32,548 nt of DNA from IMG/VR virus record IMGVR_UViG_3300020470_000109, positions 1-32,548 of that record; one strand, given 5' to 3'. Shown here one piece after another: positions 47-18,147 of the stretch (the stretch's first letter is position 1; the number at the start of each line of letters is the position of its first letter). A program made the position numbers and the translations under genes. The DNA is from a virus. The notes under the pieces were generated by a model, which saw nothing but the letters and a program-made list of their open reading frames with translations, was not told where the DNA came from and searched no databases.

Positions 47-69
47 AAACCCCCTAACGGGGGTTTTTT
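47..69 (+). terminator. Rho-independent terminator
   Basis: An 8-bp stem, AAACCCCC (47-54) with GGGGGTTT (59-66), has a TAAC loop and runs into a T tract (64-69). It would end transcription of the gene cut off at the left edge. The reverse strand also has an A/T-rich flank, so some bidirectional action is possible. Confidence 0.85.
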
Positions 70-161: not shown

Positions 162-1097
162 ATGACAAAAAACCTTCACATTGAACACCCCGAAGACAGC
201 ATCCTCACAGGTGACTTATCTGTATTGGATGCTTTTTTAATGCCTCTACTTCTATCATTGAAAATAGATGGGGCACCTTCCATTGTATGGGGTCGCAACC
301 CTGCGTCTGGTTTACAGTTCGTGGGAACTAAGTCAGTTTTTAATAAAAAGAAAATTATCATATGTGAAACCCCTTCAGATATTGAAAAGCACTATGCACA
401 CAAACCTGCACTGCTTCAAATTCTTATGGCGTGCATGGCATACCTGCCAATCACAAAGAACATCTATCAAGGTGATTTTATTGGATTCGGTGGTAGTAAG
501 AATTACAGACCGAACACTTTAACCTATTCGTTTCCAGAAAAGGTAAAATCAAAAATCATCATTGCACCGCATACAAAGTATTATGCTGCGGAAGATTTAC
601 GTGATGCAATCGCAATGCCTCTTACTGAAAAGTTAGAAAGTGGTGAGCATGTAAGATACGTTCAACCCACGGCGTTCATATCTGATGAGGGTGAGAGAAC
701 AGATGCTTTTTATTCCCTTAAAGTTTTGATTGACTATGCAAAGAAGTTAGCAGAGCATGTTGACTTCGTTGATGAGCGAACAGCAAAGAAAATTAAAACC
801 AATATTAACGCACTCATCCGTGAGGGTAAAGAGGTTGACTCCGATGCGTTTGAGTGGGCGGGTCTATGCAAGGCAAACCTGATTGAGTTCTGGCATACAG
901 TAAATGAAATTAAATTACAGGCACTTAGTTTGTGTGATGATAATTCTGATTTTGAAACCCGTATTAATTACACGGAACGCACGAAGGGGGAGGGATACGT
1001 CATGATCACCCGCTTTGGATATTTCAAGTTAGTCAGTCGCCGTGAGTTTTCATATTCTAATTTTGTTAATCCCAAGTTTGCCGTGAGGACAGCATGA
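162..1097 (+). CDS. DUF6267-type protein with nucleotidyltransferase (ligase-like) motifs
   Basis: The product has 311 residues counted from the ATG at 162. That start puts the conserved HIEHPEDSILTGD block at the N-terminus, as I recall for cyanophage DUF6267 proteins. Upstream in-frame starts at 87 (GTG) and 102 (ATG) fall inside a predicted hairpin and add unconserved residues, so I do not favour them. Visible motifs match the covalent nucleotidyltransferase superfamily (DNA/RNA ligases and capping enzymes): KIDG at 34-37 with K34 as candidate nucleophile (motif I), GDFIGF at about 104-109 (motif III-like), EGYV at 277-280 (motif IV) and FKLV with K289 (motif V). The substrate is unknown; RNA or DNA end joining or adenylation is inference. 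It overlaps the next gene by ATGA, so the two are probably translationally coupled. Its base composition is less AT-rich than that of the structural genes. Confidence 0.75.
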   Translation: MTKNLHIEHPEDSILTGDLSVLDAFLMPLLLSLKIDGAPSIVWGRNPASGLQFVGTKSVFNKKKIIICETPSDIEKHYAHKPALLQILMACMAYLPITKNIYQGDFIGFGGSKNYRPNTLTYSFPEKVKSKIIIAPHTKYYAAEDLRDAIAMPLTEKLESGEHVRYVQPTAFISDEGERTDAFYSLKVLIDYAKKLAEHVDFVDERTAKKIKTNINALIREGKEVDSDAFEWAGLCKANLIEFWHTVNEIKLQALSLCDDNSDFETRINYTERTKGEGYVMITRFGYFKLVSRREFSYSNFVNPKFAVRTA

Positions 1098-1288
1098 ATT
1101 ATAATAAGTATAACACCCAACTGCGTAAGTTGATGCACTCTAATGATTTCACTCTGCTGCGACGCTCAAAGCATTTGACGTGGCAGCATACCACGGGGGT
1201 TAAGTTGCATACATCAACCTCACCTTCAGATGTAAATGCCATTAGACAGGTTGAACGTGATATACGTAGAAAGTTGATTCGTTCGTGA
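1094..1288 (+). CDS. Small HicA-like (YcfA-type, dsRBD-fold) protein
   Basis: A 64-residue protein whose ATG overlaps the preceding stop (ATGA). GAGGA at 1085-1089 is a good ribosome binding site. The sequence pattern is helix (QLRKLMHSNDF), strand with RRSKHLTW, strand with KLHTSTSPSD, then helix (IRQVERDIRRKL). This resembles the alpha-beta-beta-alpha layout of HicA/YcfA proteins, and the SKH triplet occupies the place of the usual GSH with its conserved histidine. HicA toxins are small RNases, but no HicB-like partner is adjacent. The neighbour is the ligase-like DUF6267 protein, so an RNA-binding or RNA-processing helper role is an alternative. The protein is strongly basic. The family call is tentative; the gene itself is convincing because of coupling, ribosome site and the terminator that follows. 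Confidence 0.7.
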   Translation: MNYNKYNTQLRKLMHSNDFTLLRRSKHLTWQHTTGVKLHTSTSPSDVNAIRQVERDIRRKLIRS

Positions 1289-1299
1289 ATCAGACAGTT

Positions 1300-1323
1300 C
1301 CCCCCGTTGATCGGGGGGTTGTT
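1300..1323 (+). terminator. Rho-independent terminator
   Basis: CCCCCCG (1300-1306) pairs perfectly with CGGGGGG (1312-1318) around a TTGAT loop, followed by TTGTTTATAATT. It lies 12 bases after the HicA-like gene and closes the DUF6267 transcription unit. Confidence 0.85.
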
Positions 1324-1434: not shown

Positions 1435-1611
1435 ATGAAAAAAAATTCTGGGAAAATTTTTGAGTCCATACAGGTTGATTCAGTAACTAATCATTATTAT
1501 GTTGAATTGCCCGAATGGGTCGTTAATGATTTTGGATGGTATGAAGGGTCTGAGATTGAACTTACATTAGACGGAACTGAAATCGTTATCACGGAAAGAG
1601 AAAATGACTAA
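1435..1611 (+). CDS. AbrB/MazE-like small DNA-binding protein
   Basis: A 58-residue protein starting MKKNSGKIFE. The stretch YYVELPEWVVNDFGWYEGS, followed by IELTLDGTEIVITERE, matches the SpoVT-AbrB/MazE pattern (L-P-x-W-h-x-D-h-G-W-x-E-G-x-x-h-x-h...). This is a swapped-hairpin fold that binds DNA as a dimer. Such proteins are frequent in cyanophages and may act as transcription regulators or as antitoxin relics. The ATG is chosen because the open frame has no other in-frame start that keeps the domain, and there is no clear Shine-Dalgarno site. Its stop overlaps the next gene (ATGACTAA), so the two are coupled. Confidence 0.7.
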   Translation: MKKNSGKIFESIQVDSVTNHYYVELPEWVVNDFGWYEGSEIELTLDGTEIVITEREND

Positions 1612-1777
1612 GCAAGATCCTACTTATCACATATACTTACAGAACAATTGTTTATTCAAAGATTTAACTGAATGGGAGTTTAATATTATATGGAGACGGA
1701 TATATAAGTCATATTTTACAGAAGATTTAACGTATGAAAAGTTAAGCGAATCTGAGATGATTGATGCATCATATTGA
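1604..1777 (+). CDS. 57-residue conserved cyanophage-type protein
   Basis: The frame begins MTKQDPTYHIYLQNN and overlaps the AbrB-like gene by eight bases. A predicted beta-hairpin (YHIYLQNNCLF) is followed by a helix (LTEWEFNIIWRRIY). The pattern matches small cyanophage proteins of unknown function and, strikingly, the N-terminus of the 55-residue protein at 2564. I cannot assign a function. Overlap with the AbrB-like gene recalls toxin-antitoxin layouts, but nothing in this sequence looks like a known toxin. Confidence 0.65.
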   Translation: MTKQDPTYHIYLQNNCLFKDLTEWEFNIIWRRIYKSYFTEDLTYEKLSESEMIDASY

Positions 1778-1802
1778 CAACCACTATATAAACTGATATA
1801 AT
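1774..1802 (+). promoter_or_regulatory. Consensus sigma-70 (early-type) promoter
   Basis: TTGACA (1774-1779), a 17-base spacer and TATAAT (1797-1802) match the bacterial consensus exactly. The -35 box overlaps the stop of the 57-residue gene, and transcription should start about 15 bases before the glycosyltransferase ATG at 1825. Cyanophage early genes use host sigma-70-like promoters, so the glycosyltransferase and the small genes after it are probably expressed early. Confidence 0.8.
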
Positions 1803-3367: not shown

Positions 3368-5323
3368 ATGCCTATTACTAAATTTACAAATCTAGATTTT
3401 GATCAAATAAAATCTTCAATTAAGAGTTATCTTCGGGCAAATTCAGATTTTACTGATTTTGATTTTGAAGGTTCTAACTTTTCGGTTTTAATTGACACTC
3501 TAGCATATAATACGTATATTACAGCATTCAACTCAAACATGGTTGTGAACGAATCTTTTCTAGATTCGGCAACTGTAAGAGAAAATGTTGTATCATTAGC
3601 AAGAAATATTGGTTATGTACCCCGTTCTAGGACTGCTGCACAGGCATCTGTTTCGTTTACTGTTTCACCTGATACTAAACATGATACATTAACCTTAAAG
3701 GCTGGTTTAGTATGTACTGGACAAACAGATAATAGTTCTTTTGTATTCTCTATTCCTGATGATATAGAAAGACCTGCAACGATTGTAACTGATTCTAGTG
3801 GACAAGAGACAAGTAGATCTCATAATTTTTCAAATATAACAGTTTATCAGGGAGTATATACTACTAAAAAATTCACTGTTGATGGTTCAATAGACCAAAA
3901 ATTCGTATTAGATAATACAGGTATTGATACTTCTACTTTAGTTGTATATGTTAATAACTATAATGTTGATACAAATCAATTAGAGAGTGTAGGAAGGGGT
4001 AGTTTATATAAAAAAGTTGATAATATTTTAAATATTGATAAAAATTCGGAAATATATCTGTTACAAGAGGTTCAGGATGAAAAATATGAACTTTTATTTG
4101 GTGATGGTTACTTTGGTAAAAAATTAGAGAACGGTTCTATCATTACAATTAGTTATATTATCACTGATGGTGCCTCTGGAAATGGTCCTGGTGGGTCTAG
4201 TGGATCAGAAGGTGTATTTACCTTCTCTGGCACTATGACAAACCCTTCTGGTGCTCTTATTAGTGTATCTACACCTACAATTACCACTGAAAATAAGGCA
4301 AGTAATGGTGGTGAAATCGAATCTATCGATTCAATTAAGTATTATGCCCCTAGATTGTATTCATCACAGTACAGGGCGGTTACAGCAAGGGATTATGAGT
4401 CAATAATACAGCAAATTTATCCAAATACTGAAAGTGTTTCTGTTGTTGGTGGTGAAGAAGTGGATCCACCACAATTTGGAACAGTTTTTATCACAATTAA
4501 ACCAAAAAATGGTGAATTTGTCTCTGATTTTGATAAAACACAGATACTTTCTAACTTAAAAAACTATTCTTTAACAGGAATTAATCAAAAAATCTTAGAT
4601 CTTAAGATTTTATATATTGAACTTGAAAGTTATGTCTATTATAACGATTCTAAAGTCGAAAATATCAATGATTTGAAGACAAGAGTGTCAAATAATCTTG
4701 TAAAATACTCAAATTCACTAGATCTTAACAAATTTGGAGGAAGATTTAGATATAGTAAAGTTTTAAGTGTAATTGACAATATTGATGACTCAATAACATC
4801 AAATATTACAAGAGTAAGGATTAGAAGGAACTTAAATGCTCTTATAAATCAATTTGCACAGTATGAATTGTGTTTTGGTAACCAATTTAACGTTAAAAAA
4901 GAAGGACTTAACATTAAAAGTACTGGATTTAAGATATCTGGTTCAAATGATATGGTTTATTTGACAGATATACCAAATGAAGATGAAAAAACTGGTATAA
5001 TATCAATTGTTAAACCAGATATTACCGATTCTTCAAAAACTGTTGTCGTTGAAGAGGCAGGAACAGTTGATTATATTAAAGGTGAGATAATTTTGACTAC
5101 ATTGAATATAACATCAACTCAAATAGCAAATAATATTATAGAAGTTCAAGCATTTCCAGAGTCTAATGACGTTATAGGTCTTCAGGATTTATATCTTCAA
5201 TTTTCCATTGGAAGTAGTTCAATAAATATGGTTAAGGACACTATTACTTCTGGACAACAAATATCTGGAGTTGGGTTTAAAGTTACCTCAAGCTATACAA
5301 ACGGAGCATTAATAAGGGCATGA
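3368..5323 (+). CDS. 6: Baseplate wedge subunit gp6
   Basis: The 651-residue product is close to T4 gp6 (about 660). gp6 forms the inner ring of the wedge together with gp25 and gp7. The first 100 residues include VLIDTLAYNTYITAFNSNM and the SATVRENVVSLARNIGY motif, typical of baseplate J/gp6-like proteins. LYSSQYRAVTARDYESIIQQ (around residues 330-350) marks the second conserved domain. A glycine/serine-rich linker (about residues 265-282) separates the two. Its stop overlaps the start of the giant gene (ATGA), suggesting coupled translation and matched amounts. I see no truncation or shift. Confidence 0.93.
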   Translation: MPITKFTNLDFDQIKSSIKSYLRANSDFTDFDFEGSNFSVLIDTLAYNTYITAFNSNMVVNESFLDSATVRENVVSLARNIGYVPRSRTAAQASVSFTVSPDTKHDTLTLKAGLVCTGQTDNSSFVFSIPDDIERPATIVTDSSGQETSRSHNFSNITVYQGVYTTKKFTVDGSIDQKFVLDNTGIDTSTLVVYVNNYNVDTNQLESVGRGSLYKKVDNILNIDKNSEIYLLQEVQDEKYELLFGDGYFGKKLENGSIITISYIITDGASGNGPGGSSGSEGVFTFSGTMTNPSGALISVSTPTITTENKASNGGEIESIDSIKYYAPRLYSSQYRAVTARDYESIIQQIYPNTESVSVVGGEEVDPPQFGTVFITIKPKNGEFVSDFDKTQILSNLKNYSLTGINQKILDLKILYIELESYVYYNDSKVENINDLKTRVSNNLVKYSNSLDLNKFGGRFRYSKVLSVIDNIDDSITSNITRVRIRRNLNALINQFAQYELCFGNQFNVKKEGLNIKSTGFKISGSNDMVYLTDIPNEDEKTGIISIVKPDITDSSKTVVVEEAGTVDYIKGEIILTTLNITSTQIANNIIEVQAFPESNDVIGLQDLYLQFSIGSSSINMVKDTITSGQQISGVGFKVTSSYTNGALIRA

Positions 5324-8300
5324 TAACGACTGGTATTGATAAAAGAATTCAAATACAACAAATTGTTGATAATCAACTTCCTGAATTTGTATTAAGTGAA
5401 AGTCCGAAGGCGGTAGACTTTTTAAAACAATACTATATTTCTCAGGAATATCGTGGTGGTCCTATTGATATTACTGATAATTTAGATCAATATTTAAAAT
5501 TAGATAATTTAACACCTGATGTTATAGTTGGTGTAACAACATTGGGTGCTAATATTACTAATGAAGATTCAACTATTAATGTTACGAATACTAAGGGATT
5601 TCCTAATGAATATGGACTTTTAAAGATTGATGATGAGATTATTACATATACTGGTAAAACAAATACTAGTTTTACTGGTTGTGTTCGTGGATTTAGTGGA
5701 ATAACAACATATCATGATGACAATAATCCAAGAGAATTAGTTTTTTCAACTTCTACTGCAGGAATTCATACTAATGGATCTTCTGTTTCTAATCTTAGTG
5801 CTTTATTTTTACAAGAATTTTATAAAAAACTTAAATATTCATTAACTCCTGGATTAGAAAACATTGAATTTATATCTAATCTTGATGTTAATAATTTTAT
5901 AAAAGAAGCAAAGTCATTTTTCCAGTCAAAAGGTACTGAAGAATCTTTTAAAATCCTTTTTAAAGTATTATATGGTGTAAATCCTACAATAATTGATCTT
6001 GAAGATTATTTGGTTAAACCATCATCTTCAAAATATATTAGACGTGAAAGAATTGTTGCTGAAAGAATATCTGGAAATCCAATAAATCTACAAGGACAAA
6101 CAGTTACTAGGTCTGCTGATCCTAACGCTACAGCGTCTATATCCGAAGTTGAACCTGTTTTAGGTGTTCCAGGGTCAGGAATTCTTTCTGACGCTGATTA
6201 TTTTATTTTAGATGCATTTATTGGATATGCTGATGAAGAATATGTTACTGGAACCTTTAATATTCCAGGTAAAACAAAGGTTATTGGTAATGTATCTGCT
6301 GGATCAAGTATTATTACAGTAGATTCTACTATTGGTTTTAGTACTACTGGTACAATTATATCTGGTATTAATACTAATATTCAATATACTGATAAAACTT
6401 TAAATCAGTTTTTAAATTGTTCTGGTGTTAATGAAGCAATTTCTTCTGAAGATGATATAAGATTTGATGATAATATTTTTGGATATGAAAATGGAGATGT
6501 AACAAAGAAGGTAGAATTAAGAATTACTGGAATTTTATCTAAATTTGTTCCAGATGATAATAATAGATTATCAATAGAGAATGAAAAGGTTATTATTAAA
6601 AGTCTTGGGGAAAATATTGAAAAAGGTAGTACAAATAAGGAAATATTTGCCAATTCATGGATTTATAATTCATCTCCATCATATGATATAAATTCTGAAA
6701 GTATAAGAAATGAAGGAACTAGTACTCTAACATTAAAAGAAGATATTCTTGATGCATTTGATACTACAGGACTATCTAAGGGTAATTATGTTGAAGTTAT
6801 TGAAAAAACAGCTAATCCTTTTAGGAGTAAATCAATTGTTACACCAACAGATGGAGTATCACCTGCTGAAATTGACTCAATTGAGGTCATTGATAATAAA
6901 ATTATATTAAAAGATGTTGAGTATGATTTAGAACGCACAAAAACTTATGCTGTAAGAAAGGTTTTAGATAAAGTATCAAGTACGGGTGCACCTGTTAAGT
7001 ATGGAAATCAGCTAACATCAAATATTCAAAATGTTTATAATGAATCTGATACTCATTTATATGTTGCTTCTAATTCATTACCAAATTACACAATCACTAA
7101 AGATATTATAAAATCAGAGATTCCTATTGCTGATACATCAACAATACAAAATTATAATTCTATAACTGAAAAATATTCAGTAATATCATTTTCTGCAAAT
7201 GTGTCATTTGTTACTGGAGATGCAGTATATTATAGTGTACCAGAAGGTAAGTCAACATTAGTTGGATTGGAAGAAGGTGTATATTATGTTAAAAAATCTT
7301 TAATTGATGGTCGAAAAATTAATTTATATCTATCACCATCTTTTATTGAAACAGATGAACTTTTATCTAGATCTGGAGGAACTCCTAGTAATTTTATAGA
7401 ATTTGATATACCATTAACGAATAATGACAAACATACTTTTACTTTATTAAAACATTATAATCAGGAAATAGGTAATCAACGATTATTAAAGAAATTTCCA
7501 GTAGATTTATCCTTGAATGATGGTAAAAACACTGAAACTATTCCAGGACCTGTTGGAATGTTGATTGATGGTGTAGAAATCAATAATTATAAGTCATCAG
7601 ATAGTATTTTTTATGGTCCAATAGATAAATTCTCTGTTTTAAGTCAAGGAAGTGGTTATGATGTAATTAATTTACCTGAGATTTCAATTGTTGGTGGTTT
7701 GGGTTCTACTGCATTAGTTAAACCTGTTATTGAGGGTGATATTGAAGAAATTTTAGTAGATCCTCAAAATTTTGATATTGAAAGTGTAAATTCAATAAAA
7801 CTTACTGGTGGTAATAGTAGTGAAACTGTTATAAGACCTATTGTTAGTAAAAGAAATAGAGAATTAGAGTTTGATGGAAGATTGACTACTGCTAATGGTG
7901 GGGTTGATAACCAAGCAGAAACAATAACATTTAAAGAAAATCATAATTTAAAAAGTGGACAAGTATTAGTTTATGATAGAAATAGAAATAATCAATTAGG
8001 AATTACTACATGGGGTGGAAGTAATGCTGATGAATATGATTTTTTAATTCAAGGTGAACAATATTGGCCAGAAGTAGTAGGATTGAGTACTATTAAATTA
8101 TTTGGTAATGAAAATGATTATATTAGTGGTATTAATACCATAGCATTTACTTCTATTAATAAATCTGGTATTCATAAATTTAGACTTAAAGAGGCTAAAA
8201 ATACCTTAAAATCTGTTGAAATTATATCTTCAGGTGCTCCATTTATAAATCGTCAAGTTTATGTTAATCCAACAAAAATTTCTACGGTAAATTCTTCTGT

Positions 8301-11300
8301 TTCCTTTAATAATCATGGTTTTTCTGAGGGAGATTTGATTAGTTATACAACTGCTGTTGGAATTGGATCTACAATTCCTACGTCTATTAGTGGTTTATCA
8401 ACTTCAATTCAATATAAGGTAATTAAATTAGATGATAATTCTTTCAGAATTTGTGATGCTGGAATTGGTGGAACATCAAATGTAAATTATAATAATAATG
8501 ATTATGTTAAATTTGGATCAACAGGAACTGGATATCAGGTATTTAAGTATCCAGATATTCAAATTTCTCCAGAGGTTACATATTCTATTCCAACATCTGA
8601 TAAAATAAATTTAATTCCTATTATTAAAGGTAAAATAGTTGATGTAATACTTTATGAAAAGGGATCTTCATATGGTTCTCAGACAGTTGTTAATTACCAA
8701 AATAATCCAGATATTATAACAAAAATTGGAAATAGTAGAACAGGAACTGTTATTCAACCAGCATTACAACCAATTATATCTGGTGGTAAAATAATTAAAG
8801 TTAATATTCAAAATGGTGGTGGTGAATATTATTCAATTCCTAATATAGAAGTCGTCGGTGATGGATCTAATGCAAAGATAAGACCAATAATCGATACTGA
8901 CCCAAATTCAGAAACTTACTTATCTATTATTGATCTAAAAATTATTAATGGTGGTGTTGGATTTACTACAAGTAAAACATCTATTAAGGTTACACCATCT
9001 GGGTCTAATGCAGTTTTTGGATTAGATATTAGAAAATTAAGTATAAACAATATAGAAAAATATGGTAGGGAGATACTAGAAGAATCTCAAAATGGATTAA
9101 GATATTCTGTAGTTGGATATTCTACGGATATTGGTTCTAATTATTATAATGATCCTAATCCTACTACTAATCATTCTTCAATTATTGGATGGGCTTATGA
9201 TGGCAATCCAATATATGGTCCTTATGGTTACAGTGATCCTACTAAATTAGGTCCAGATATTAAGATCTTACAACCAAGTTATAGATTAGATACTTCTCAG
9301 ATTATTGATAGACCTGGTATCACTACATTTGCAGCTGGATTTTTTGCTGATGATTATGTATATGATCCTACTGTTGGTGATCTAGATGAACATAATGGAA
9401 GATATTGCAAAACTCCTGAGTATCCTAATGGCGTATATGCTTATTTTGTAGGAGTAACAACTAATGGACAAAATCCAAAATTCCCATATTTTATTGGAAA
9501 TACTTATAGATCATCCGATGATGTTTTGGATCCAGAATTTAAAATAACACAATCCTTTGATTTTAATAATTCAAATTTAGTTAGAAATACTGCATCATAT
9601 AAGATGATTTCTAAATTTACAAATAATGATTTCATTGTAGATTCGGATAAATTAATTCCACAATTAACAGTTGTTGAATCAGTAACTCGTGGATCTGTAG
9701 ATTCCTTAGAGATTGTTAATTCAGGTGAAAATTATAAATTAGGAGATAGTATCACATTTAATAATGAAAATACTGATGGATCTGGATTAAGTGCTAGTGT
9801 TAATTCAATATCTGGTGTACCAATAACTAATATTGACACAATATATGAAGAATATGCAAATGTAAAATTAGTATGGAAGAATTCTAATACAGTATCTGCA
9901 TCTATTTCAACATTCCATGATTTATCTACTGGTAATAGTATTGAAATTTCTGGCATATCTAGTGATCTTAAATCGGTTACTGGATCTCATACTATTGGTG
10001 TTCATAGTGAATCTACACTTTTATATCAAGAATGTATTGCAAATCCAACATCATTGGGTATTGTAACAGATATTGTTGTTGGTAGAACATCTGATTTAAT
10101 TTCTGTCGGTAGTAGTATTGGTATTGGTTCAGAAAGATTTTTTGTTCTTAATAAGTTTGAAGATAGAAATATATTGAGGTGTGTTAGAGGTATTACTGGT
10201 ACTGCACATACAATTTCTTCAAAAGTTACATTAATTCCAAATTCATTTGATATACCAGTAAAAACTGATTATTTTGACTCAAGATTGAATAAAGTTGTTT
10301 ATTTTAATCCAAAACAGTCAGTTGGTATTGCAACTGTTGCTGGATTTTCAACGTCAATAACTGTTACAGTTGCTGGTCTTTCAGAAACAGTATCTGTACC
10401 TGCTCAAAGCATATATCTCCCAAATCATGGATTTAAAACAGGAGATAAATTGATCTTTAAGGAACCTTTAAATATTGGATTTACAAATATTGGTGTATCT
10501 ACTAATGGAGCTCCTGGTGGTAACGTTACTAGTATTGGTCATGATGATATTGTATATGCTATTAATAAGTCTAAGGATTATATAGGAATTGTTACTAACG
10601 TTGCTGAGATTGGATCTGGAATAGGAACAGTTGGTCAAAGTTCTGGATTATATTTTATTGGTGATGCTGATAATGATTTCAGATATTCATTTAGAACACA
10701 ATATAATCAAGTAACTGCTACCGCAGAAAAAATTCTAACAACAGTCTCTCTTTCTACTGATCACCAATTACAAGAGCAAGATAGGATTAATTTAGAAGTT
10801 AAACCAAGAGAGTCTGTTGGTATTGGAACTTCTACTGCAATTAAAGTCAAATATCATAGCATTAAAAATAAATTATTAATTAATCCTATTGGATTCAATT
10901 CTACTGGCGTTAATACTACTACAAATACATTAACTATTAATGCTCATGGATTAAAAACTGGAGATAAAGTATTATATGATAATACTGGTGTTGGTCAAAC
11001 TATTGTTGGTGGTTTAAGTACTACTGGATATTTTGTTTATAGAATAGATGATAATAATATTAAATTATCAAATACTTATGCTCAATCTACAAAAGTTCCT
11101 CCTGATGTTATATCTTTAACTAATAAAGGTGGTATTTCCCATGAGTTGTCTCTAATTAATCCTCCAATCAATATTATAAGAGATAATAACTTAGTATTTG
11201 ATGTTTCAGATTCTTCATTGTCTGGATATGAGTTTAATTTATATTATGATAATAATTATGTTGATAACTTCGTATCTACTGGAAAAACTGATAATTATAT

Positions 11301-14300
11301 CATATCTAAAGTTGGAGAATCTGGAACTACTGGTTCTACTGTAACATTAAATTATTCTGATGATAATCCATTAAATTTATTTTATAATATAGAAAAAGGT
11401 GGATTTATAAGTACATCTGATATTGATGTTGTTAATAGATCAAAAATTTCTTATATTGATAGTAAGTATAATAATAATTATTCTATTGCTGGTGTTACAA
11501 GCACTTCATTTAAGATTGTAGTAGAAGATAAACCAGAAATTCTTGGATATGCTGCAACTGCTATAGGAATAGGAACTATAACATATAATACTGATTCTAT
11601 AAGAGCTCGTGGTCCAATTAACAATGTTAAAATTGATTTTGGTGGAGAAGGATATAAGCAATTACCTACATTTGTAAGTGTTGCTTCAACTCAAGGAAAA
11701 AATGCTATTGTTTTACCAAGATCTAACAATGCAAATCAAATTAATAATACTAATATATTAAATGTTGGATTTGAGTATTCTTCTGATAAAACTTTACTAC
11801 CAATAGCAAAAGTATCTCCTGTAACATCATTAAGAAATTTTGATACAATTAAAGGAATAACCATAACGGATGGTGGTTCTGGATATCAGTCTAATCCTAA
11901 ATTGGTTGTTGTTGATGCAGATACTAGACAAATTATTGATTCTGGTGCTTTGGAGGCAATTGTTAGTCCATCAACTCAAGCAATTGAAAAAGTTAATATA
12001 TTATCTGAACCAAAAGGTATTGGTAATGCTTTAATATATGCAATTGATGGTACAAATGGTGTTTCAATTACTAATGTTACTATTGGTTCGACTCAACCTA
12101 ATGATACAATATCAGGTATTGTAACATTTGTTTTAGGTACACCTGTACTTGGATTTAGCGAAACTCCATTTGCACTAGGGGATTCTGTATTTGTTGAAAA
12201 TGTACAAAATGTTGATGATGGTGGAACTACACTCAATTCACCAAGTAATGAATTCAGAACTTATCCAGTAACAAAAATAAATTCAACAAATCCATTTGAA
12301 TTGGAAATTAATATAAATGGTATTGCACCAAATCCTGGATTTGCAAAATCAGAACAAACTTTTGCGACTTTAATTAATTATAGTAAGTATCCTAAATTTA
12401 CTATAACTCAAGAATCTACGGGATTTATTGAAGGAGAAGATATATTAGTAGATAATAATGGACAATTTATTGATAGAGAACTTATTCTAGATAAAATTGG
12501 CAATGATTATATAAAAATATTAGGTAAATATGATTTAAAGATTGATGATAAAATTAAAGGTGAGACTAGTGGTACTGTTGCTACTATTAATACCTTATAT
12601 GAAAATAAAGGGTATTTTACAGTAGATTATTCTTCTAGAAGAGATATTGGTTGGCTTGATAATATTGGAAAATTAGATCAAGACTATCAAGTATTACCTG
12701 ATAATGATTACTATCAAAATCTATCTTATACCATTCAAAGTCCAATTGAATATAAAGAATTAATTGATCCTGTAAATAGATTGGTTCATACTACTGGACT
12801 TAAGAATTTTGCAGATACTGGAATTAGTTCTAGTACTAGTTCTGGATTAACAACAGCAGTAGATGCTTCAACTATAGTTCGTGATTTTCTTAATGAGAAG
12901 AGGGTAGATTCTATTAATGCATTTGATATGGTCAGGGATGTTGATATTCTTACAAATCCATTAAGAACAAAATATATTCAATTTAAAAATAAAGAATTAG
13001 TAAATTATTTCAAATGTAAAACTAATAGAGTTTTAGAAATTGATAATATTAATACTTTATTTGCAAATGCAACAAATAATGCTAATCAAACTGGAGATAT
13101 TGCATTAGCAAATGGTTATGATAGATTTTTAATTCAAATTAGAAATCCAGAAAATAATGATATTCAATGTTCAGAAATTGTTACTTCAATAGATTATACT
13201 AATAATGATGTATATACTATTGAAAGAGGTTCAATATCAAATACTGGTATTTCCACTCTTAAAGATGATGTTTATAGAAGTCTTACAGATGTTATAGGAG
13301 TTTATGATAATGGTTATAAATTACAATTCTTACCAATTAATACGTTTGATGTAGATCTTGATATTAAGGTCTTCCAAAATTCGTTTAATTCTATAAGTGG
13401 TGATATTACTACTGGAATTGGAACAACTAGTTTTGGTTTTGCAGAATTAACTGGTATTGGGGCAGAAATTGGTTCTGGTACTACTGTTACACTTACTTCA
13501 AGTAATGTAGCAAATACAGAATCATATTTCGTATCTGCTGAGTTAAGAGATACTACTACTTTTGAGAATCAAATTGTTGATCTTTATATAACTCATGATG
13601 GAACAAATTCTTATATTGCTAATTATGATTTAGATATAAACAATGATAGTGGTATTGGTACTTTCTCATCAAAAATAGATTCTAATGTTCTACATTTAGA
13701 ATATACAAACGATAGATCTAATACAGTTGAAGTTAGATCTAAAATAGTAGGTTTTGGTACTACTGCTTCTGGTATTGGAACTTATAGATTTAAGTCTACA
13801 GAACAACCAGATGGAAGTGAAGATTCTATAAGAATACAGTCTGAATTTACAAATGTAGCATTAGGAGCAACTACAACTATTGCTCAATTTAGTAAAACAA
13901 AAGATACTACTGTTAAGAGTATAATAAGAACTTCAATAGGAAATACTAGTTCTGTTCATCAATTATTGATGATTCATGATGGAACTAATACATTTATTGA
14001 ACAGTATCCATTTATCTCTATCGGTAATGATATTGGAATAGGTACTTTCTCTTCAAGTATAAATGGATCTAACTTTAATTTAATATTTACACCAAATACA
14101 GAGTTTTATGGTGGTGGTAATATAGAAGTTCAAATTTTTAGTGAAATATTTAATACTAATATTGATACTGTTAATACACCTTCAATTCTTACTTACGGAA
14201 AATCTATTGATTCATTATCACTATTACAATTTGACGGGACAAATAGTAATAGAGGAAATACTAATGCCTTTAAATTGAAGTATAAAAATACTCCAATTTT

Positions 14301-17300
14301 TGGAAAGTATTTTAATCCAAATTCCAGTGCTTTAGTATCTTCTACTGGAATGTTTACTATTAAGGATCATTTCTTTAATAATAATGAAAAATTAGTTTAT
14401 ACTCCAGGATCTTCAATTGGTAGTGTTGGAATTGCATCACTCGTAATGACTGGTGGAAACCCATTACCAAAAGAAGTTTATTGTATAAAGAGTGATACTG
14501 ATAGATTCCAAGTATCAACTACGTTAGGTGGTTCAGCAGTAACATTCTCTGCATTGGGATCTGGTAATTATCATAGATTTGAAATGGATAAGAAAAATGA
14601 GAAGAGTTTAATTGTTTTAGATGATATTATTCAATCACCTTTGGCATATACTCCAATTAAACACACTCTTACTGGTAATGTTAGTGGTCAGGTTTCTATA
14701 TCAACATCAGTACTTTCTGTTTCTGGTATTTCTACGGTAGTTATTAATGATATTTTAAAAATTGATGATGAATATGTAAAAGTGACCAATGTTGGTATAG
14801 GAACTACTAATGTTGGTCCAATATCACCTTCTGGATCTTTAAAACTTATTGAAGTTGAAAGAGGATTTGTTGGAACATCTGCATCTACTCACACAGATAC
14901 TGCTGATGTAAGATTATATAAAGGTGGATATAATATTGTTGGAGATACGATTTATTTTAGTGAGACACCTCGTGGAAATAATGAAACAGTGAAAAATGAG
15001 TCTAATAGAGATACTGGTAGAGCAAACTTTAGTGGAAGAGTTTATTTAAGACAAGATTATTCTTCTAATGTAATATTTGATGACATATCAACAGAATTTA
15101 CTGGAATAGGAAGAACATTTGTAATAACTTCAAGTGGTATCAATACAATTGGTCTTACAACAGGAAGTACTTTAATGACTGTTAATGGTTTCTTCCAAAA
15201 ACCAACTACTGAAAATAACTTAGGTAATAATTATACATTTGATGGTAATGAAGCAGTGGGAATTACTAGTATCGTATACACTGGTATTACTTCAAATAAT
15301 GGAGTTCTTATTGTCAGTGATATAGATGTTAATCAGAACCAACTTCCTAGATCTGGTCAAATTATTTCAATAGCATCTACTGGTGGATTAGGTATAGCAC
15401 CTTTGGTTGGAGCAGCAGTAACAGCAGTTATTGGTGCTGGTAAGTCTATTGTATCTGTTGGTTTAGGATCTGAGGATTTCAATGGATCTGGATATAGTTC
15501 TGGATTAAGTACAACTGGAGATGGTTTAATATCTATTGGAATAACAGATGCTGCATATGGTCATGAATTTGTGAGTGCTGTTACAAATTCTATAACAGTT
15601 TCTGCAAATGGAATTGGTGCTAATGCAACATTTACACCTACAGATGTTTCATATACGTCCCATACAGGCGTTCTAGTATTGACCAAAGAGAATCATGGTC
15701 TTATGACATCTGATGCTCATCAGGCGATTACAGGAACCCAGTATGACGCAACTGTCGGTATTATGACTGTTAAATTGGCAGCAACACCTAGTCCTGCTCT
15801 TGCAGATGGTCAGTTAGTTAAAATTAACGATCTTGGCGTTAAATTTACTTGTGATAAAGATGATCATGCTACTAATCATGATTATCCAAGAGAAAGTGAT
15901 CCTATTAGTGGTAAATGGATTCCAATTTCAAATGTAACTGGTGGGGATACATTTGAAGTCACTGTTCTTGATTCTATTCCATCATCCTTTACTGGTATTC
16001 ATACCTTTGTATCTGGTGTTGCAGGTGCTATTAAGAGATCTGCTAATACGCTGTCAATTGCTAATAATGGTTTAACATTTAAATGTTCAAAGGATGGATA
16101 TGCGACTGATCATACATATCCACGTGCAGGTGTTGATCCTGTTGCTGGTGTATCTACTACAATTGTAGAGGCAACTTCAAATACTGTTACTGTTAATATT
16201 GGTTATGCAGGTGGAGTTGGAACTGGAGCATCAATTAGAGCTTCTGTTGGTGTTGGAGGTACTTTAACCTTTGAAGTTGTTACTGGTGGAAGTGGATATG
16301 TTAATCCTATTATTATGCCACCTTCTCCATCATATGAGAATCTTGAAATAATTGGTGTGTCTAAACTAGCAATTGGTTCAACTACTGATACTGGAAAGGC
16401 AGCATTAATATCTCTTGATGTTGGACCTGTTTCTACGACTGGAATAGGATCAACTTTATATGAGGTTAAGTCTTTTGAATTAACAAGAAAGGGTTATGGA
16501 TTTGAAGAAGGAGATGTATTCAGACCAATATTTGATGGTGAAATTCCAAATAAAGTTGGAATAGTTACTGATAAAGGTCTTTCATCAATGTCAAGTAATT
16601 TTGAAATTACTGTTAATAGTATATACAGCGATACATTTGCGTTATGGAATCTTGGTGAATTTGATTACCTAGATTCAATTCAAAATCTTCAAGATGGAAG
16701 TAGAACTAGATTCCCATTAAACTTTAATGGTGAGTTAGTTACATTTAAAACAGATTCAAGAGATGTTGATTCTCAGTTAATTGAAATAAGATCTTTATTA
16801 TTAATATTCATTAATGGTGTTCTACAAGTTCCAGGAGAATCTTATCTATATGATGGTGGAACAAGTTTTATATTTACAGAACCACCAGATGAATTTGATA
16901 ATGTTGCTCTTTTCTTCTATAAAGGGACAAATAATGTAGATATTGAATATACTGATATAGTAGAAACTATAAAAACTGGTGATGAACTTCAAATTCTTAA
17001 AGATCATAATAATAAGATATTAGATCAAGAAAATAGAACAGTTTTGGGAATAACCACTTCTGATGTTGTTGAAACAAATTTATATTTTGATGTTGGTATT
17101 AATGATGATTTTGATAGACCTGTAATTTGGACTAAACAAAAACGTGGTAAAACTATCAATGGTGATATTGTTTATAAGTCAAGACCATCAATTGAACCAT
17201 TGATATTCCCACAATCTAAAATAATTTCTGGATTAACAACAACTTCTACTGAACTTTTTGTAGATAATTTAAATTTATTTAATTATGAACTTGATTCACC

Positions 17301-18147
17301 TTTAAGTGTAAATGCATTAATTGTTGATAATTCACAAACTCTAGCAGGTGCTTCTCTTACTGCTGTTGTTTCTGCTGGTGGTACTATTAGTTCGATTTCA
17401 GTTGTTAGTGGTGGTTCTGGTTATGTTGGAGCAACAACTTCCGTTTCAATTGGAATACCAACAACTGGTATATCAGGTATTGGTCTTGATCCTATTGCTC
17501 TTGGAACTGCAAATATTACTAATGGTTCTATATCATCAGTTGATGTTACGAATCCTGGAAGAGGATACAGTCAAGCAAATCCACCACAAGTTATTGCACC
17601 AATACCAACAGCACCAAAAGAAGTTATTACTGGTATTGCTAATACTGCTGGATTCTCTGGAATAGTTACTGGAATAACAACAACGAATGGAACCTCAGGT
17701 AATCCATTAGCATTGAAGTTCTTTATCAATAGACCAGATGGTGCATCATGTTCTCCTTTAGCTGTTGGATATCCAATTCATATTTTTGATACTTCGGTTG
17801 GATCTGGAGTAACTTCTATTGATAGTGGAAATGATGCTATAGTTGGAATAGGAACTACTTATTTGGATAATATTTACTATGTTCATTCAAGAGTAGTGAC
17901 TGGTCCAAATAGATTTGAGTTTGTAGCAAATGTTGATTCTGGTTCTGATATTATTGGAATAGGAACAACTGGAATTGGATGTGGTAAATTCTCTTGGGGT
18001 AAATTGAGTGGATTTGCTAGATCGGGTGAACCAATATCTATTGCAGTGACTGGAAAAACAGTTAATACTGGATTCACAACTTATCCAACTATACAAAGAA
18101 GGAAAGCTGGGATTAGAGGCACTGGTGCAATAGACACTAAATTATAG
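5320..18147 (+). CDS. Giant gp7-like baseplate wedge protein with YHYH-type domain and many repeats
   Basis: A single intact frame of 4,275 residues, about four times T4 gp7 (1,032). Its place between gp6 and gp8 and its conserved N-terminus (QLPEFVLSESPKAVDFLKQY) identify it as the cyanophage gp7-position protein, expected to clamp the wedge and reach outwards. Visible parts in order: the N-terminal wedge domain (1-240); beta-rich repeats (760-1245); a YHYH-like domain (about 1258-1381, with WAYDGNPIYGPYGY at 1291-1304); further repeat blocks; a tandem domain pair around T2758 and M2884; a second tandem pair at 3508 and 3588; and a conserved C-terminal region (SRTRFPLNFNGELVTFK and LLLIFINGVLQVPG). 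It is rich in Ile, Ser, Asn, Thr and Gly, with many GIGT and GIST motifs. The start is coupled to gp6 (ATGA). Function beyond wedge scaffolding is inference; host-surface contact is plausible for the repeats. Confidence 0.88.
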   Translation: MITTGIDKRIQIQQIVDNQLPEFVLSESPKAVDFLKQYYISQEYRGGPIDITDNLDQYLKLDNLTPDVIVGVTTLGANITNEDSTINVTNTKGFPNEYGLLKIDDEIITYTGKTNTSFTGCVRGFSGITTYHDDNNPRELVFSTSTAGIHTNGSSVSNLSALFLQEFYKKLKYSLTPGLENIEFISNLDVNNFIKEAKSFFQSKGTEESFKILFKVLYGVNPTIIDLEDYLVKPSSSKYIRRERIVAERISGNPINLQGQTVTRSADPNATASISEVEPVLGVPGSGILSDADYFILDAFIGYADEEYVTGTFNIPGKTKVIGNVSAGSSIITVDSTIGFSTTGTIISGINTNIQYTDKTLNQFLNCSGVNEAISSEDDIRFDDNIFGYENGDVTKKVELRITGILSKFVPDDNNRLSIENEKVIIKSLGENIEKGSTNKEIFANSWIYNSSPSYDINSESIRNEGTSTLTLKEDILDAFDTTGLSKGNYVEVIEKTANPFRSKSIVTPTDGVSPAEIDSIEVIDNKIILKDVEYDLERTKTYAVRKVLDKVSSTGAPVKYGNQLTSNIQNVYNESDTHLYVASNSLPNYTITKDIIKSEIPIADTSTIQNYNSITEKYSVISFSANVSFVTGDAVYYSVPEGKSTLVGLEEGVYYVKKSLIDGRKINLYLSPSFIETDELLSRSGGTPSNFIEFDIPLTNNDKHTFTLLKHYNQEIGNQRLLKKFPVDLSLNDGKNTETIPGPVGMLIDGVEINNYKSSDSIFYGPIDKFSVLSQGSGYDVINLPEISIVGGLGSTALVKPVIEGDIEEILVDPQNFDIESVNSIKLTGGNSSETVIRPIVSKRNRELEFDGRLTTANGGVDNQAETITFKENHNLKSGQVLVYDRNRNNQLGITTWGGSNADEYDFLIQGEQYWPEVVGLSTIKLFGNENDYISGINTIAFTSINKSGIHKFRLKEAKNTLKSVEIISSGAPFINRQVYVNPTKISTVNSSVSFNNHGFSEGDLISYTTAVGIGSTIPTSISGLSTSIQYKVIKLDDNSFRICDAGIGGTSNVNYNNNDYVKFGSTGTGYQVFKYPDIQISPEVTYSIPTSDKINLIPIIKGKIVDVILYEKGSSYGSQTVVNYQNNPDIITKIGNSRTGTVIQPALQPIISGGKIIKVNIQNGGGEYYSIPNIEVVGDGSNAKIRPIIDTDPNSETYLSIIDLKIINGGVGFTTSKTSIKVTPSGSNAVFGLDIRKLSINNIEKYGREILEESQNGLRYSVVGYSTDIGSNYYNDPNPTTNHSSIIGWAYDGNPIYGPYGYSDPTKLGPDIKILQPSYRLDTSQIIDRPGITTFAAGFFADDYVYDPTVGDLDEHNGRYCKTPEYPNGVYAYFVGVTTNGQNPKFPYFIGNTYRSSDDVLDPEFKITQSFDFNNSNLVRNTASYKMISKFTNNDFIVDSDKLIPQLTVVESVTRGSVDSLEIVNSGENYKLGDSITFNNENTDGSGLSASVNSISGVPITNIDTIYEEYANVKLVWKNSNTVSASISTFHDLSTGNSIEISGISSDLKSVTGSHTIGVHSESTLLYQECIANPTSLGIVTDIVVGRTSDLISVGSSIGIGSERFFVLNKFEDRNILRCVRGITGTAHTISSKVTLIPNSFDIPVKTDYFDSRLNKVVYFNPKQSVGIATVAGFSTSITVTVAGLSETVSVPAQSIYLPNHGFKTGDKLIFKEPLNIGFTNIGVSTNGAPGGNVTSIGHDDIVYAINKSKDYIGIVTNVAEIGSGIGTVGQSSGLYFIGDADNDFRYSFRTQYNQVTATAEKILTTVSLSTDHQLQEQDRINLEVKPRESVGIGTSTAIKVKYHSIKNKLLINPIGFNSTGVNTTTNTLTINAHGLKTGDKVLYDNTGVGQTIVGGLSTTGYFVYRIDDNNIKLSNTYAQSTKVPPDVISLTNKGGISHELSLINPPINIIRDNNLVFDVSDSSLSGYEFNLYYDNNYVDNFVSTGKTDNYIISKVGESGTTGSTVTLNYSDDNPLNLFYNIEKGGFISTSDIDVVNRSKISYIDSKYNNNYSIAGVTSTSFKIVVEDKPEILGYAATAIGIGTITYNTDSIRARGPINNVKIDFGGEGYKQLPTFVSVASTQGKNAIVLPRSNNANQINNTNILNVGFEYSSDKTLLPIAKVSPVTSLRNFDTIKGITITDGGSGYQSNPKLVVVDADTRQIIDSGALEAIVSPSTQAIEKVNILSEPKGIGNALIYAIDGTNGVSITNVTIGSTQPNDTISGIVTFVLGTPVLGFSETPFALGDSVFVENVQNVDDGGTTLNSPSNEFRTYPVTKINSTNPFELEININGIAPNPGFAKSEQTFATLINYSKYPKFTITQESTGFIEGEDILVDNNGQFIDRELILDKIGNDYIKILGKYDLKIDDKIKGETSGTVATINTLYENKGYFTVDYSSRRDIGWLDNIGKLDQDYQVLPDNDYYQNLSYTIQSPIEYKELIDPVNRLVHTTGLKNFADTGISSSTSSGLTTAVDASTIVRDFLNEKRVDSINAFDMVRDVDILTNPLRTKYIQFKNKELVNYFKCKTNRVLEIDNINTLFANATNNANQTGDIALANGYDRFLIQIRNPENNDIQCSEIVTSIDYTNNDVYTIERGSISNTGISTLKDDVYRSLTDVIGVYDNGYKLQFLPINTFDVDLDIKVFQNSFNSISGDITTGIGTTSFGFAELTGIGAEIGSGTTVTLTSSNVANTESYFVSAELRDTTTFENQIVDLYITHDGTNSYIANYDLDINNDSGIGTFSSKIDSNVLHLEYTNDRSNTVEVRSKIVGFGTTASGIGTYRFKSTEQPDGSEDSIRIQSEFTNVALGATTTIAQFSKTKDTTVKSIIRTSIGNTSSVHQLLMIHDGTNTFIEQYPFISIGNDIGIGTFSSSINGSNFNLIFTPNTEFYGGGNIEVQIFSEIFNTNIDTVNTPSILTYGKSIDSLSLLQFDGTNSNRGNTNAFKLKYKNTPIFGKYFNPNSSALVSSTGMFTIKDHFFNNNEKLVYTPGSSIGSVGIASLVMTGGNPLPKEVYCIKSDTDRFQVSTTLGGSAVTFSALGSGNYHRFEMDKKNEKSLIVLDDIIQSPLAYTPIKHTLTGNVSGQVSISTSVLSVSGISTVVINDILKIDDEYVKVTNVGIGTTNVGPISPSGSLKLIEVERGFVGTSASTHTDTADVRLYKGGYNIVGDTIYFSETPRGNNETVKNESNRDTGRANFSGRVYLRQDYSSNVIFDDISTEFTGIGRTFVITSSGINTIGLTTGSTLMTVNGFFQKPTTENNLGNNYTFDGNEAVGITSIVYTGITSNNGVLIVSDIDVNQNQLPRSGQIISIASTGGLGIAPLVGAAVTAVIGAGKSIVSVGLGSEDFNGSGYSSGLSTTGDGLISIGITDAAYGHEFVSAVTNSITVSANGIGANATFTPTDVSYTSHTGVLVLTKENHGLMTSDAHQAITGTQYDATVGIMTVKLAATPSPALADGQLVKINDLGVKFTCDKDDHATNHDYPRESDPISGKWIPISNVTGGDTFEVTVLDSIPSSFTGIHTFVSGVAGAIKRSANTLSIANNGLTFKCSKDGYATDHTYPRAGVDPVAGVSTTIVEATSNTVTVNIGYAGGVGTGASIRASVGVGGTLTFEVVTGGSGYVNPIIMPPSPSYENLEIIGVSKLAIGSTTDTGKAALISLDVGPVSTTGIGSTLYEVKSFELTRKGYGFEEGDVFRPIFDGEIPNKVGIVTDKGLSSMSSNFEITVNSIYSDTFALWNLGEFDYLDSIQNLQDGSRTRFPLNFNGELVTFKTDSRDVDSQLIEIRSLLLIFINGVLQVPGESYLYDGGTSFIFTEPPDEFDNVALFFYKGTNNVDIEYTDIVETIKTGDELQILKDHNNKILDQENRTVLGITTSDVVETNLYFDVGINDDFDRPVIWTKQKRGKTINGDIVYKSRPSIEPLIFPQSKIISGLTTTSTELFVDNLNLFNYELDSPLSVNALIVDNSQTLAGASLTAVVSAGGTISSISVVSGGSGYVGATTSVSIGIPTTGISGIGLDPIALGTANITNGSISSVDVTNPGRGYSQANPPQVIAPIPTAPKEVITGIANTAGFSGIVTGITTTNGTSGNPLALKFFINRPDGASCSPLAVGYPIHIFDTSVGSGVTSIDSGNDAIVGIGTTYLDNIYYVHSRVVTGPNRFEFVANVDSGSDIIGIGTTGIGCGKFSWGKLSGFARSGEPISIAVTGKTVNTGFTTYPTIQRRKAGIRGTGAIDTKL
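5551..5745 (+). repeat. Shared 'ERG-H' module, copy 1 (gp7-like)
   Basis: The motif IDDEIITYTG is followed by CVRGFSGITTYH. It is one of five copies of a roughly 60-residue beta-rich module with the pattern IxSE(h)h...hxRGhxG....H, found in the giant protein (three copies), the DUF4815 protein and gp15. Confidence 0.7.
7628..7740 (+). repeat. Gly-Tyr beta repeat in gp7-like protein
   Basis: VLSQGSGYDVINLPEISIVG is followed by a small-residue strand. It fits the recurring pattern h-x-x-G-G-x-G-Y-x-x-x-P-x-h-x-h-x-G-x-G-x-x-A seen throughout the late proteins here. Confidence 0.6.
8305..8480 (+). repeat. 'HGFxxGD' module in gp7-like protein
   Basis: NNHGFSEGDLISYTT leads to a strand-rich unit ending in DDNSFRICD. 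Related units in the same protein begin at about 10417, 10939 and 14362 (NHGFKTGDKLIF, AHGLKTGDKVLYD, DHFFNNNEKLVYT), and a shorter one is at 7930. A related NHGMTADNNIVVLD occurs in the DUF4815 protein at about 25727. Confidence 0.6.
8635..9045 (+). repeat. Cluster of three Gly-Tyr beta repeats in gp7-like protein
   Basis: Three consecutive units contain EKGSSYGSQ, NGGGEYYSIPNIEVVGDGSN and NGGVGFTTSKTSIKV. The cluster ends just before the YHYH-like domain. Confidence 0.6.
9091..9460 (+). other. YHYH-like domain coding segment within the gp7-like gene
   Basis: Residues about 1258-1381. WAYDGNPIYGPYGY (1291-1304) and LDEHNGRYCKTPEYPNG (about 1355-1371) are the signature blocks of the YHYH domain. 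The eponymous motif reads YAYF (1373-1376), so both of its histidines are absent. It is flanked on both sides by repeats, as an inserted domain would be. Confidence 0.75.
10054..10235 (+). repeat. Shared 'ERG-H' module, copy 2 (gp7-like)
   Basis: IGSERFFVLNKF is followed by LRCVRGITGTAH. It matches copy 1 in order and spacing but is diverged in sequence. Confidence 0.65.
10417..11095 (+). repeat. Two further 'HGxxxGD' modules in gp7-like protein
   Basis: NHGFKTGDKLIFKEP begins at about 10423 and AHGLKTGDKVLYDNTGVG at about 10942. The second ends YFVYRIDDNNIKLSN, matching the end of the 8305 unit (QYKVIKLDDNSFRICD). Each unit appears to have 50-60 residues. Confidence 0.6.
11600..11945 (+). 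repeat. Two Gly-Tyr beta repeats in gp7-like protein
   Basis: KIDFGGEGYKQLPTFVSVAS and ITITDGGSGYQSNPKLVVVD lie about 80 residues apart and fit the shared Gly-Tyr repeat pattern. Confidence 0.6.
13515..14150 (+). repeat. Tandem duplicated beta-domain in gp7-like protein
   Basis: Two units about 127 residues apart. The first carries LYITHDGTNSYIANYDL, then GIGTFSSKI and a closing strand VEVRSKIVGF. The second carries LLMIHDGTNTFIEQYPF, then GIGTFSSSI and IEVQIFSEIF. The HDGTN core, GIGTFSS and final strand are all kept, so this is a genuine internal duplication. Confidence 0.75.
14691..14925 (+). repeat. Shared 'ERG-H' module, copy 3 (gp7-like)
   Basis: IDDEYVKVTNV is followed, after an insertion, by EVERGFVGTSASTH. 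It fits the module seen at 5551 and 10054 and in two other proteins. Confidence 0.65.
15838..16215 (+). repeat. Tandem 'FxCxxDxxATxHxYPR' repeat in gp7-like protein
   Basis: The first copy, KFTCDKDDHATNHDYPRESD, starts at residue 3508. The second, KCSKDGYATDHTYPRAGVDP, starts at 3588. The conserved cysteines (C3511, C3589) are 78 residues apart and each copy ends with a Val/Thr-rich strand. This is a clear internal duplication. Confidence 0.75.
16255..16560 (+). repeat. Gly-Tyr beta repeats near the C-terminal part of gp7-like protein
   Basis: FEVVTGGSGYVNPIIMPPSP and FELTRKGYGFEEGDVFRPIF fit the shared Gly-Tyr pattern. They lie just before the conserved C-terminal region of the giant protein. 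Confidence 0.6.
17347..17615 (+). repeat. Gly-Tyr beta repeat pair at the end of gp7-like protein
   Basis: ISVVSGGSGYVGATTSVSIG and VDVTNPGRGYSQANPPQVIA flank a small-residue strand segment. The arrangement closely resembles the pair in the DUF4815 protein at 25288 and the set in gp14. Confidence 0.65.

What the first reader, a model, noticed from the sequence alone, without database searches (positions are those of the whole stretch)
162..1288. Ligase-like DUF6267 protein coupled to a HicA-like protein
KIDG, GDFIGF, EGYV and FKLV appear in the order expected for nucleotidyltransferase motifs I, III, IV and V, with K34 as candidate adenylated lysine. The next gene, overlapping by ATGA, looks like a small dsRBD-fold HicA/YcfA protein. 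A nucleotidyltransferase paired with an RNA-binding protein, in its own terminator-bounded unit, could be an RNA repair, RNA-modifying or anti-defence system. The motifs and coupling are seen; the function is inference.
Basis: partly seen in the sequence, partly recalled or inferred. Interest (0 to 1): 0.65.

Follow-up and report, generated by a model that had tools for sequence, protein, structure and literature searches.

The report
Hidden ligase-like enzyme of marine phages
An uncharacterised protein carried by almost every T4-like cyanobacterial phage has the catalytic motifs, and a predicted shape most like, enzymes that join broken nucleic acid strands, and these phages carry no other recognisable ligase, so it is a testable candidate for their missing one.

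Summary
Window 162-1097 encodes a 311-aa DUF6267 protein; 1094-1288 encodes a 64-aa HicA-like protein overlapping it by ATGA. In 76 diverse relatives K34-x-D36-G37, D105, E277-G278-x-V280 and K289 are invariant, in covalent-nucleotidyltransferase order. AlphaFold2 gives pLDDT 92.9; the top 22 PDB fold hits are all ligases or capping enzymes, but weak (best E 0.013, TM about 0.25). A second, longer member was inconclusive.

The coupling needs revising. The HicA-like gene marks only part of one clade, but there it nearly always follows DUF6267, and in four loci a HicA-family protein takes the same slot. Across the family the general partner is a cytidylyltransferase-like protein, usually adjacent, in metaG-MbCM1 fused; pelagiphages add a P-loop kinase.

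DUF6267 occurs in about as many cyanophage records as gp41 (432 against 437), and none of 13 genome-size cyanophage/pelagiphage-type records has a recognised DNA or RNA ligase. Missing gp30 ligase in cyanomyoviruses is a published puzzle (PMC2984593).

Best reading: a divergent polynucleotide-ligase-like adenylyltransferase with no OB domain. Substrate and reaction are inferred.

The parts
162..1097 (+). DUF6267 protein, predicted ligase-like covalent nucleotidyltransferase, 311 aa
   Evidence: PF19782 5e-69; phrog_455; AF2 pLDDT 92.9; PDB fold hits
261..272 (+). Motif I K34-I-D-G, candidate adenylated lysine
   Evidence: K34, D36 and G37 invariant in 76 relatives
327..335 (+). T56-K57-S, candidate motif Ia
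   Evidence: T56 and K57 invariant; position compares with SKGS of T4 Rnl1 (sequence; equivalence inferred)
468..491 (+). Motif III-like QGDFIGFG with D105 in place of the usual Glu
   Evidence: Q103 and D105 invariant; strand 101-109 in the model
510..584 (+). PNTxxY and APHTKYY, family signature around candidate motif IIIa (P117, N118, Y122, H137, T138, Y140)
   Evidence: invariant; strands 120-123 and 132-141
990..1001 (+). Motif IV E277-G-Y-V
   Evidence: E277, G278 and V280 invariant
1026..1034 (+). Motif V K289-L-V; only 20 residues follow, so no OB domain
   Evidence: K289 and R293 invariant; model ends in short helices and a disordered tail
1094..1288 (+). HicA-like protein, 64 aa, phrog_2053, overlaps DUF6267 by ATGA
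   Evidence: phrog_2053 5e-16; homologues and slot-mates hit PF07927; H27 invariant; synteny
47..66 (+). Terminator-like hairpin upstream
   Evidence: z -2.4
1300..1318 (+). Terminator-like hairpin downstream
   Evidence: z -3.4

Best explanation
DUF6267 is a divergent covalent nucleotidyltransferase of the polynucleotide ligase superfamily. K34 would attack ATP (or NAD+) to form lysyl-AMP, with D105, E277 and K289 lining the site, and the AMP would then be passed to a 5'-phosphate end so that nicked or broken nucleic acid is sealed. It would serve the replication and repair apparatus of T4-like cyanophages and their kin, which carry no recognisable ligase. It lacks the C-terminal OB domain of DNA ligases, so it probably needs a partner: a cytidylyltransferase-like protein (adjacent or fused) in most lineages, a kinase in pelagiphages, and a small HicA-like RNA-binding-fold protein in part of the window's clade. 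Shown: motif invariance, a confident model, weak fold match, distribution and synteny. Inferred: chemistry, substrate, partner roles.
For: All motif residues invariant in 76 sequences. AF2 pLDDT 92.9, pTM 0.88, and the first 22 of 289 PDB matches are DNA or RNA ligases, tRNA ligase or capping enzyme, before any other fold. After its own relatives, viral models give RNA ligases. Motif IV-V matches T4 Rnl1 in order and spacing. Found in 371 Synechococcus and 61 Cyanophage records against 376 and 61 for gp41. In 13 genome-size cyanophage/pelagiphage-type records no PF01068, PF01653, PF09414, PF09511 or RtcB, while T4, XaC1 and DLP6 ring in some of these searches. It lies in the replication neighbourhood of P-SSM4 (gp41, mazG), HTVC008M and Melnitz (UvsX/RecA, primase-helicase). 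An adjacent P-loop kinase occurs in 53 of 80 pelagiphage-type loci.
Against: Fold match weak (best E 0.013, TM at most 0.32); the longer member gave LigA adenylation domains only at ranks 6, 11, 14, 18 and 34 among noise. No significant sequence-profile link to Rnl1 or Rnl2. No OB domain or motif VI. Motif III has Asp, not Glu; motif V has one lysine. DLP6 and XaC1 carry DUF6267 as well as a DNA ligase. In the window's clade it has moved away from the replication genes.
Confidence: 0.58

Rival explanations
1. It is specifically the missing replicative DNA ligase of T4-like cyanophages, replacing gp30 in sealing Okazaki fragments.
For: Near-universal in cyanophage records and no other ligase recognised; next to gp41, uvsX or recA in several genomes; the literature names the absence of gp30 and allows an unrecognised distant homologue (PMC2984593).
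Against: No OB domain; DLP6 and XaC1 have both DUF6267 and a DNA ligase; the same paper prefers host ligase as the substitute; the gene has left the replication cluster in the window's clade and in P-SSM2.
Confidence: 0.2
2. It is an RNA ligase that, with a kinase or other end-healing partner, repairs tRNA cut by host anticodon nucleases, like T4 Rnl1 with Pnkp.
For: Closest motif match is T4 Rnl1; RNA ligases follow its relatives in viral fold hits; kinase of AAA_33 type adjacent in pelagiphages; HicA-like RNA-binding-fold neighbour here.
Against: The kinase is adjacent only in one lineage; Melnitz keeps a kinase far away and cyanophages show none above cut-off; XaC1 already has Rnl1- and Rnl2-type ligases.
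Confidence: 0.25
3. It has the nucleotidyltransferase fold but is not a ligase: it transfers AMP or another nucleotide to a cap, cofactor or protein, working with the cytidylyltransferase-like partner.
For: Partner is a HIGH-type nucleotidyltransferase with weak NMN adenylyltransferase similarity, adjacent or fused and found in 15 of 16 DUF6267 records searched, T4 having neither; no OB domain.
Against: Fold hits are mostly ligases, capping enzyme appearing only at rank 22.
Confidence: 0.2
4. The pair is a toxin-antitoxin-like unit: the HicA-like protein is an RNase and DUF6267 controls or repairs its damage.
For: HicA-like gene is almost never seen without DUF6267 upstream; a HicA-family protein occupies the slot in four loci; the HicA-type histidine is invariant; no HicB was seen next to it.
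Against: Most DUF6267 genes have no HicA-like neighbour; DUF6267 is far more widespread than the pair.
Confidence: 0.06

Closest known systems
T4 RNA ligase 1 (Rnl1, PF09511)
   Same: KxDG, a following S/T-K-x-S element, EGYVAVxxxGxxxK motif IV-V spacing and order
   Different: Not detectable by profile; lacks the Rnl1 C-terminal domain; Asp at motif III; one lysine in motif V
T4 RNA ligase 2 and trypanosome editing ligase REL1 (PF09414)
   Same: Among the top PDB fold hits (2hvr, 2hvq, 1xdn, 1s68); the REL1 structure also lacks an OB domain (own knowledge)
   Different: Weak E-value and TM; no profile similarity; long helical insertion before motif IV
ATP- and NAD-dependent DNA ligases (PF01068, PF01653)
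   Same: Best fold hit is an archaeal DNA ligase; motifs I, III-like, IV and V in order
   Different: No OB domain or motif VI, no DNA-binding domain, no Pfam match
Pfam DUF6267 / phrog_455 / T4-GC 71
   Same: Full member
   Different: The family carries no function; the window form is the short one, with a HicA-like neighbour
HicA toxins (PF07927)
   Same: Homologues and slot-mates of the small gene match; invariant His and Trp
   Different: The window copy itself is below detection; no HicB seen

Membership tests
Pfam DUF6267 | Score above curated cut-off | tested here: met
   233.9 bits against 27
Covalent nucleotidyltransferase (ligase/capping) superfamily | Invariant KxDG nucleophile motif | tested here: met
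   K34, D36, G37 in 76 of 76
Covalent nucleotidyltransferase (ligase/capping) superfamily | Motifs III, IV and V in order | tested here: met
   D105, E277-G-x-V280, K289 invariant; motif III has Asp for Glu
Covalent nucleotidyltransferase (ligase/capping) superfamily | Nucleotidyltransferase-domain fold | tested here: inconclusive
   First model: 22 top hits all of this superfamily but E 0.013 at best; second model weak
Covalent nucleotidyltransferase (ligase/capping) superfamily | Lysyl-NMP intermediate | not testable with these tools
   Needs biochemistry
ATP-dependent DNA ligase | C-terminal OB domain with motif VI | tested here: not met
   20 residues after motif V; short helices and a disordered tail
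ATP-dependent DNA ligase | Pfam DNA_ligase_A_M match | tested here: not met
   only DUF6267 matches; genomes negative
T4 Rnl1 or Rnl2 families | Profile match | tested here: not met
   no Pfam match; hhalign probability 0.2-1% in profile comparisons
HicA toxin family (small gene) | PF07927 above cut-off | tested here: not met
   no hit for the window copy; homologues E 0.0015 and 0.0026 sub-threshold; slot-mates above cut-off
HicA toxin family (small gene) | Catalytic His | tested here: met
   H27 invariant in 7 aligned homologues; its equivalence to the HicA catalytic His is inferred
HicAB toxin-antitoxin system | Adjacent HicB | tested here: not met
   neighbouring ORFs are DUF6267 and a MazE/AbrB-like ORF

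The most novel reading that the evidence does not exclude
DUF6267 founds a new ligase family: a minimal OB-less polynucleotide ligase that is the long-missing ligase of T4-like cyanophages and pelagiphages, and works as a complex or fusion with a HIGH-type nucleotidyltransferase, for example an NAD+-using ligase whose NMN product the partner recycles.
Probability: 0.2. Interest if true: 0.85.

Novelty: new variant of a known kind. Interest (0 to 1): 0.6.

Why it matters
T4-like cyanophages are among the most abundant marine viruses, and how they seal lagging strands and repair breaks without gp30 ligase has been open since at least 2010 (PMC2984593). A near-universal protein of unknown function with an intact ligase-like active site makes that question directly testable with one point mutant and one purified protein, and would give a function to a family found in some 470 phage records.

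Tried and rejected
PDB sequence searches with the protein and with alignments gave nothing. Profile comparison with Rnl1 and Rnl2 gave no significant match; the Rnl1-Rnl2 control was also poor, so this is uninformative rather than negative. The second AF2 model (long form) gave mostly helical noise. The idea that DUF6267 and the HicA-like gene form a family-wide unit was rejected by synteny. HicA with a HicB antitoxin was rejected: no HicB seen. The NrdB annotation of the metaG-MbCM1 protein was rejected: it is DUF6267 plus a cytidylyltransferase-like domain. Literature searches found no published function. The one scan of bacterial and archaeal genomes gave only three relatives, so the family is essentially viral.

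Full report
What is there. The window is a 32.5-kb virus record carrying T4-type tail genes: gp25, gp6-like, gp8, neck protein and tail sheath stabiliser. At 162-1097 lies a 311-aa DUF6267 protein (Pfam 5e-69; phrog_455 6e-97). At 1094-1288, overlapping by ATGA, lies a 64-aa protein of phrog_2053. Terminator-like hairpins bound the pair.

Motifs. Aligning 76 relatives, with identities to the window protein down to 25%, leaves 27 invariant positions. They include K34, D36, G37 (motif I KxDG), T56, K57, D105 (motif III position), H137, T138, E277, G278, V280 (motif IV EGxV), K289 (motif V) and R293. This is the order seen in DNA ligases, RNA ligases and capping enzymes. A pattern of these motifs occurs in 8 of 200,000 shuffles and in none of 1,325 unrelated ORFs of at least 200 aa; it was written after the fact.

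Fold. AlphaFold2 gives pLDDT 92.9 and pTM 0.88. The first 22 PDB hits are all covalent nucleotidyltransferases: archaeal and human DNA ligases, T4 Rnl2, REL1, tRNA ligase and a capping enzyme. The scores are weak (best E 0.013, probability 0.80, TMq 0.16-0.32), so I treat the fold as suggestive. The longer pelagiphage form (pLDDT 85.3) has a large helical insertion and returned mostly noise, with NAD-ligase adenylation domains at ranks 6, 11, 14, 18 and 34. Profile comparison found nothing significant to Rnl2 or Rnl1. Proven relatives Rnl1 and Rnl2 also scored poorly in the same test (probability 0.1-10%), so the test lacks power. The one aligned stretch with T4 Rnl1 is motif IV-V: NIEGYVAVMKDGSHFKIK against NPEGYVAVDKSGKAVKLV. 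After motif V only 20 residues remain, so there is no OB domain.

Distribution. tblastn finds the family in 471 phage records, among them 371 Synechococcus, 61 Cyanophage and 24 Prochlorococcus, plus Pelagibacter, Methylophilales, Stenotrophomonas (DLP6), Xanthomonas, Vibrio and Pseudoalteromonas phages. gp41 helicase hits 376 Synechococcus and 61 Cyanophage records, so the gene is close to universal in T4-like cyanophages; cut-offs differ between the two searches and records were not matched one by one. T4-like phages of enterobacteria do not appear among the listed DUF6267 organisms. In 17 records searched with profile HMMs, T4, XaC1 and DLP6 contain a DNA ligase, and T4 and XaC1 also RNA ligases; the 13 genome-size cyanophage, pelagiphage and related records and one 61-kb fragment contain none, and no RtcB was found in the 16 records searched for it. 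Clokie, Millard and Mann (PMC2984593) state that gp30 ligase homologues are not found in cyanomyoviruses and leave open an unrecognised distant homologue, though they think host ligase more probable. DLP6 and XaC1, which hold both, show that DUF6267 is not simply interchangeable with DNA ligase.

Partners. In P-SSM4-like loci a cytidylyltransferase-like gene overlaps or abuts DUF6267 in 76 of 80, in S-WAM2-like loci in 79 of 80, and in HTVC008M-like loci it lies downstream in 62 of 80, with a Zeta-toxin/AAA_33 kinase in 53 of 80 (counts limited by contig ends). In metaG-MbCM1 the two are one 728-aa ORF, and several viral models named as cytidyltransferases match the DUF6267 fold. In DLP6 and C48C1 the order is DUF6267, a small gene, cytidyltransferase. 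In P-SSM2 and S-SRM01, nearer the window's lineage, the partner gene exists elsewhere in the genome. T4 lacks both.

The HicA-like gene. A viral-contig scan found 26 loci with relatives of the small gene. DUF6267 ends immediately upstream in 22; two start too close to a contig end to tell, L401 has a DUF6267 fragment further upstream, and L412 has no DUF6267 within 3 kb. Conversely most DUF6267 genes lack it. In L016, L063, L067 and L068 the same slot, with the same ATGA overlap, holds a HicA-family protein; the three that were scored pass Pfam's cut-off. Homologues L071 and L011 score sub-threshold to the same model. The aligned copies share an invariant H27 and W30. No HicB was found beside it; the next ORF (1435-1611) is MazE/AbrB-like below threshold, and relatives of it follow DUF6267 in many loci irrespective of the HicA-like gene.

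Mechanism. I infer K34 adenylation and AMP transfer to a 5'-phosphate end with strand sealing; the partner would supply what the missing OB domain does elsewhere. Whether the substrate is DNA in replication and repair or RNA cut by host defences is not decided. Core distribution and the replication neighbourhood favour DNA; similarity to Rnl1 and the kinase favour end repair of RNA or DNA.

Novelty. No paper in the held library mentions DUF6267; preprints and most subscription papers are not covered. I file it as a new variant of a known kind: a candidate divergent branch of the ligase superfamily, with membership supported by motifs and unproven by structure or chemistry.

Noticed in passing
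window 1435-1611: 58-aa MazE/AbrB-like ORF (PF04014 E 0.027, below cut-off), with relatives downstream of DUF6267 in many relatives of this clade whether or not the HicA-like gene is present.
   Followed up: partly
window 1774-1802: A perfect sigma-70 promoter (TTGACA-17-TATAAT with TG extension) just before the phrog_1574 gene (1825-2586), which has weak glycosyltransferase similarity.
   Followed up: no
window 5320-18147: One 4,275-aa ORF between baseplate genes gp6 and gp8, an extremely large baseplate or fibre protein.
   Followed up: no
L146 2995-5181 (metaG-MbCM1, AFD03029.1): Deposited as NrdB ribonucleotide reductase; it is DUF6267 fused to a cytidylyltransferase-like domain, so the annotation looks wrong.
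   Followed up: yes
L016, L063, L067, L068 downstream of DUF6267: HicA-family proteins occupy the slot that holds the HicA-like gene in the window, suggesting repeated replacement of one small RNA-binding-fold protein by another.
   Followed up: partly
L144 6377-8167 and L173 6384-8180: Cytidylyltransferase-like partners carry a C-terminal DUF5824 domain of unknown function.
   Followed up: no
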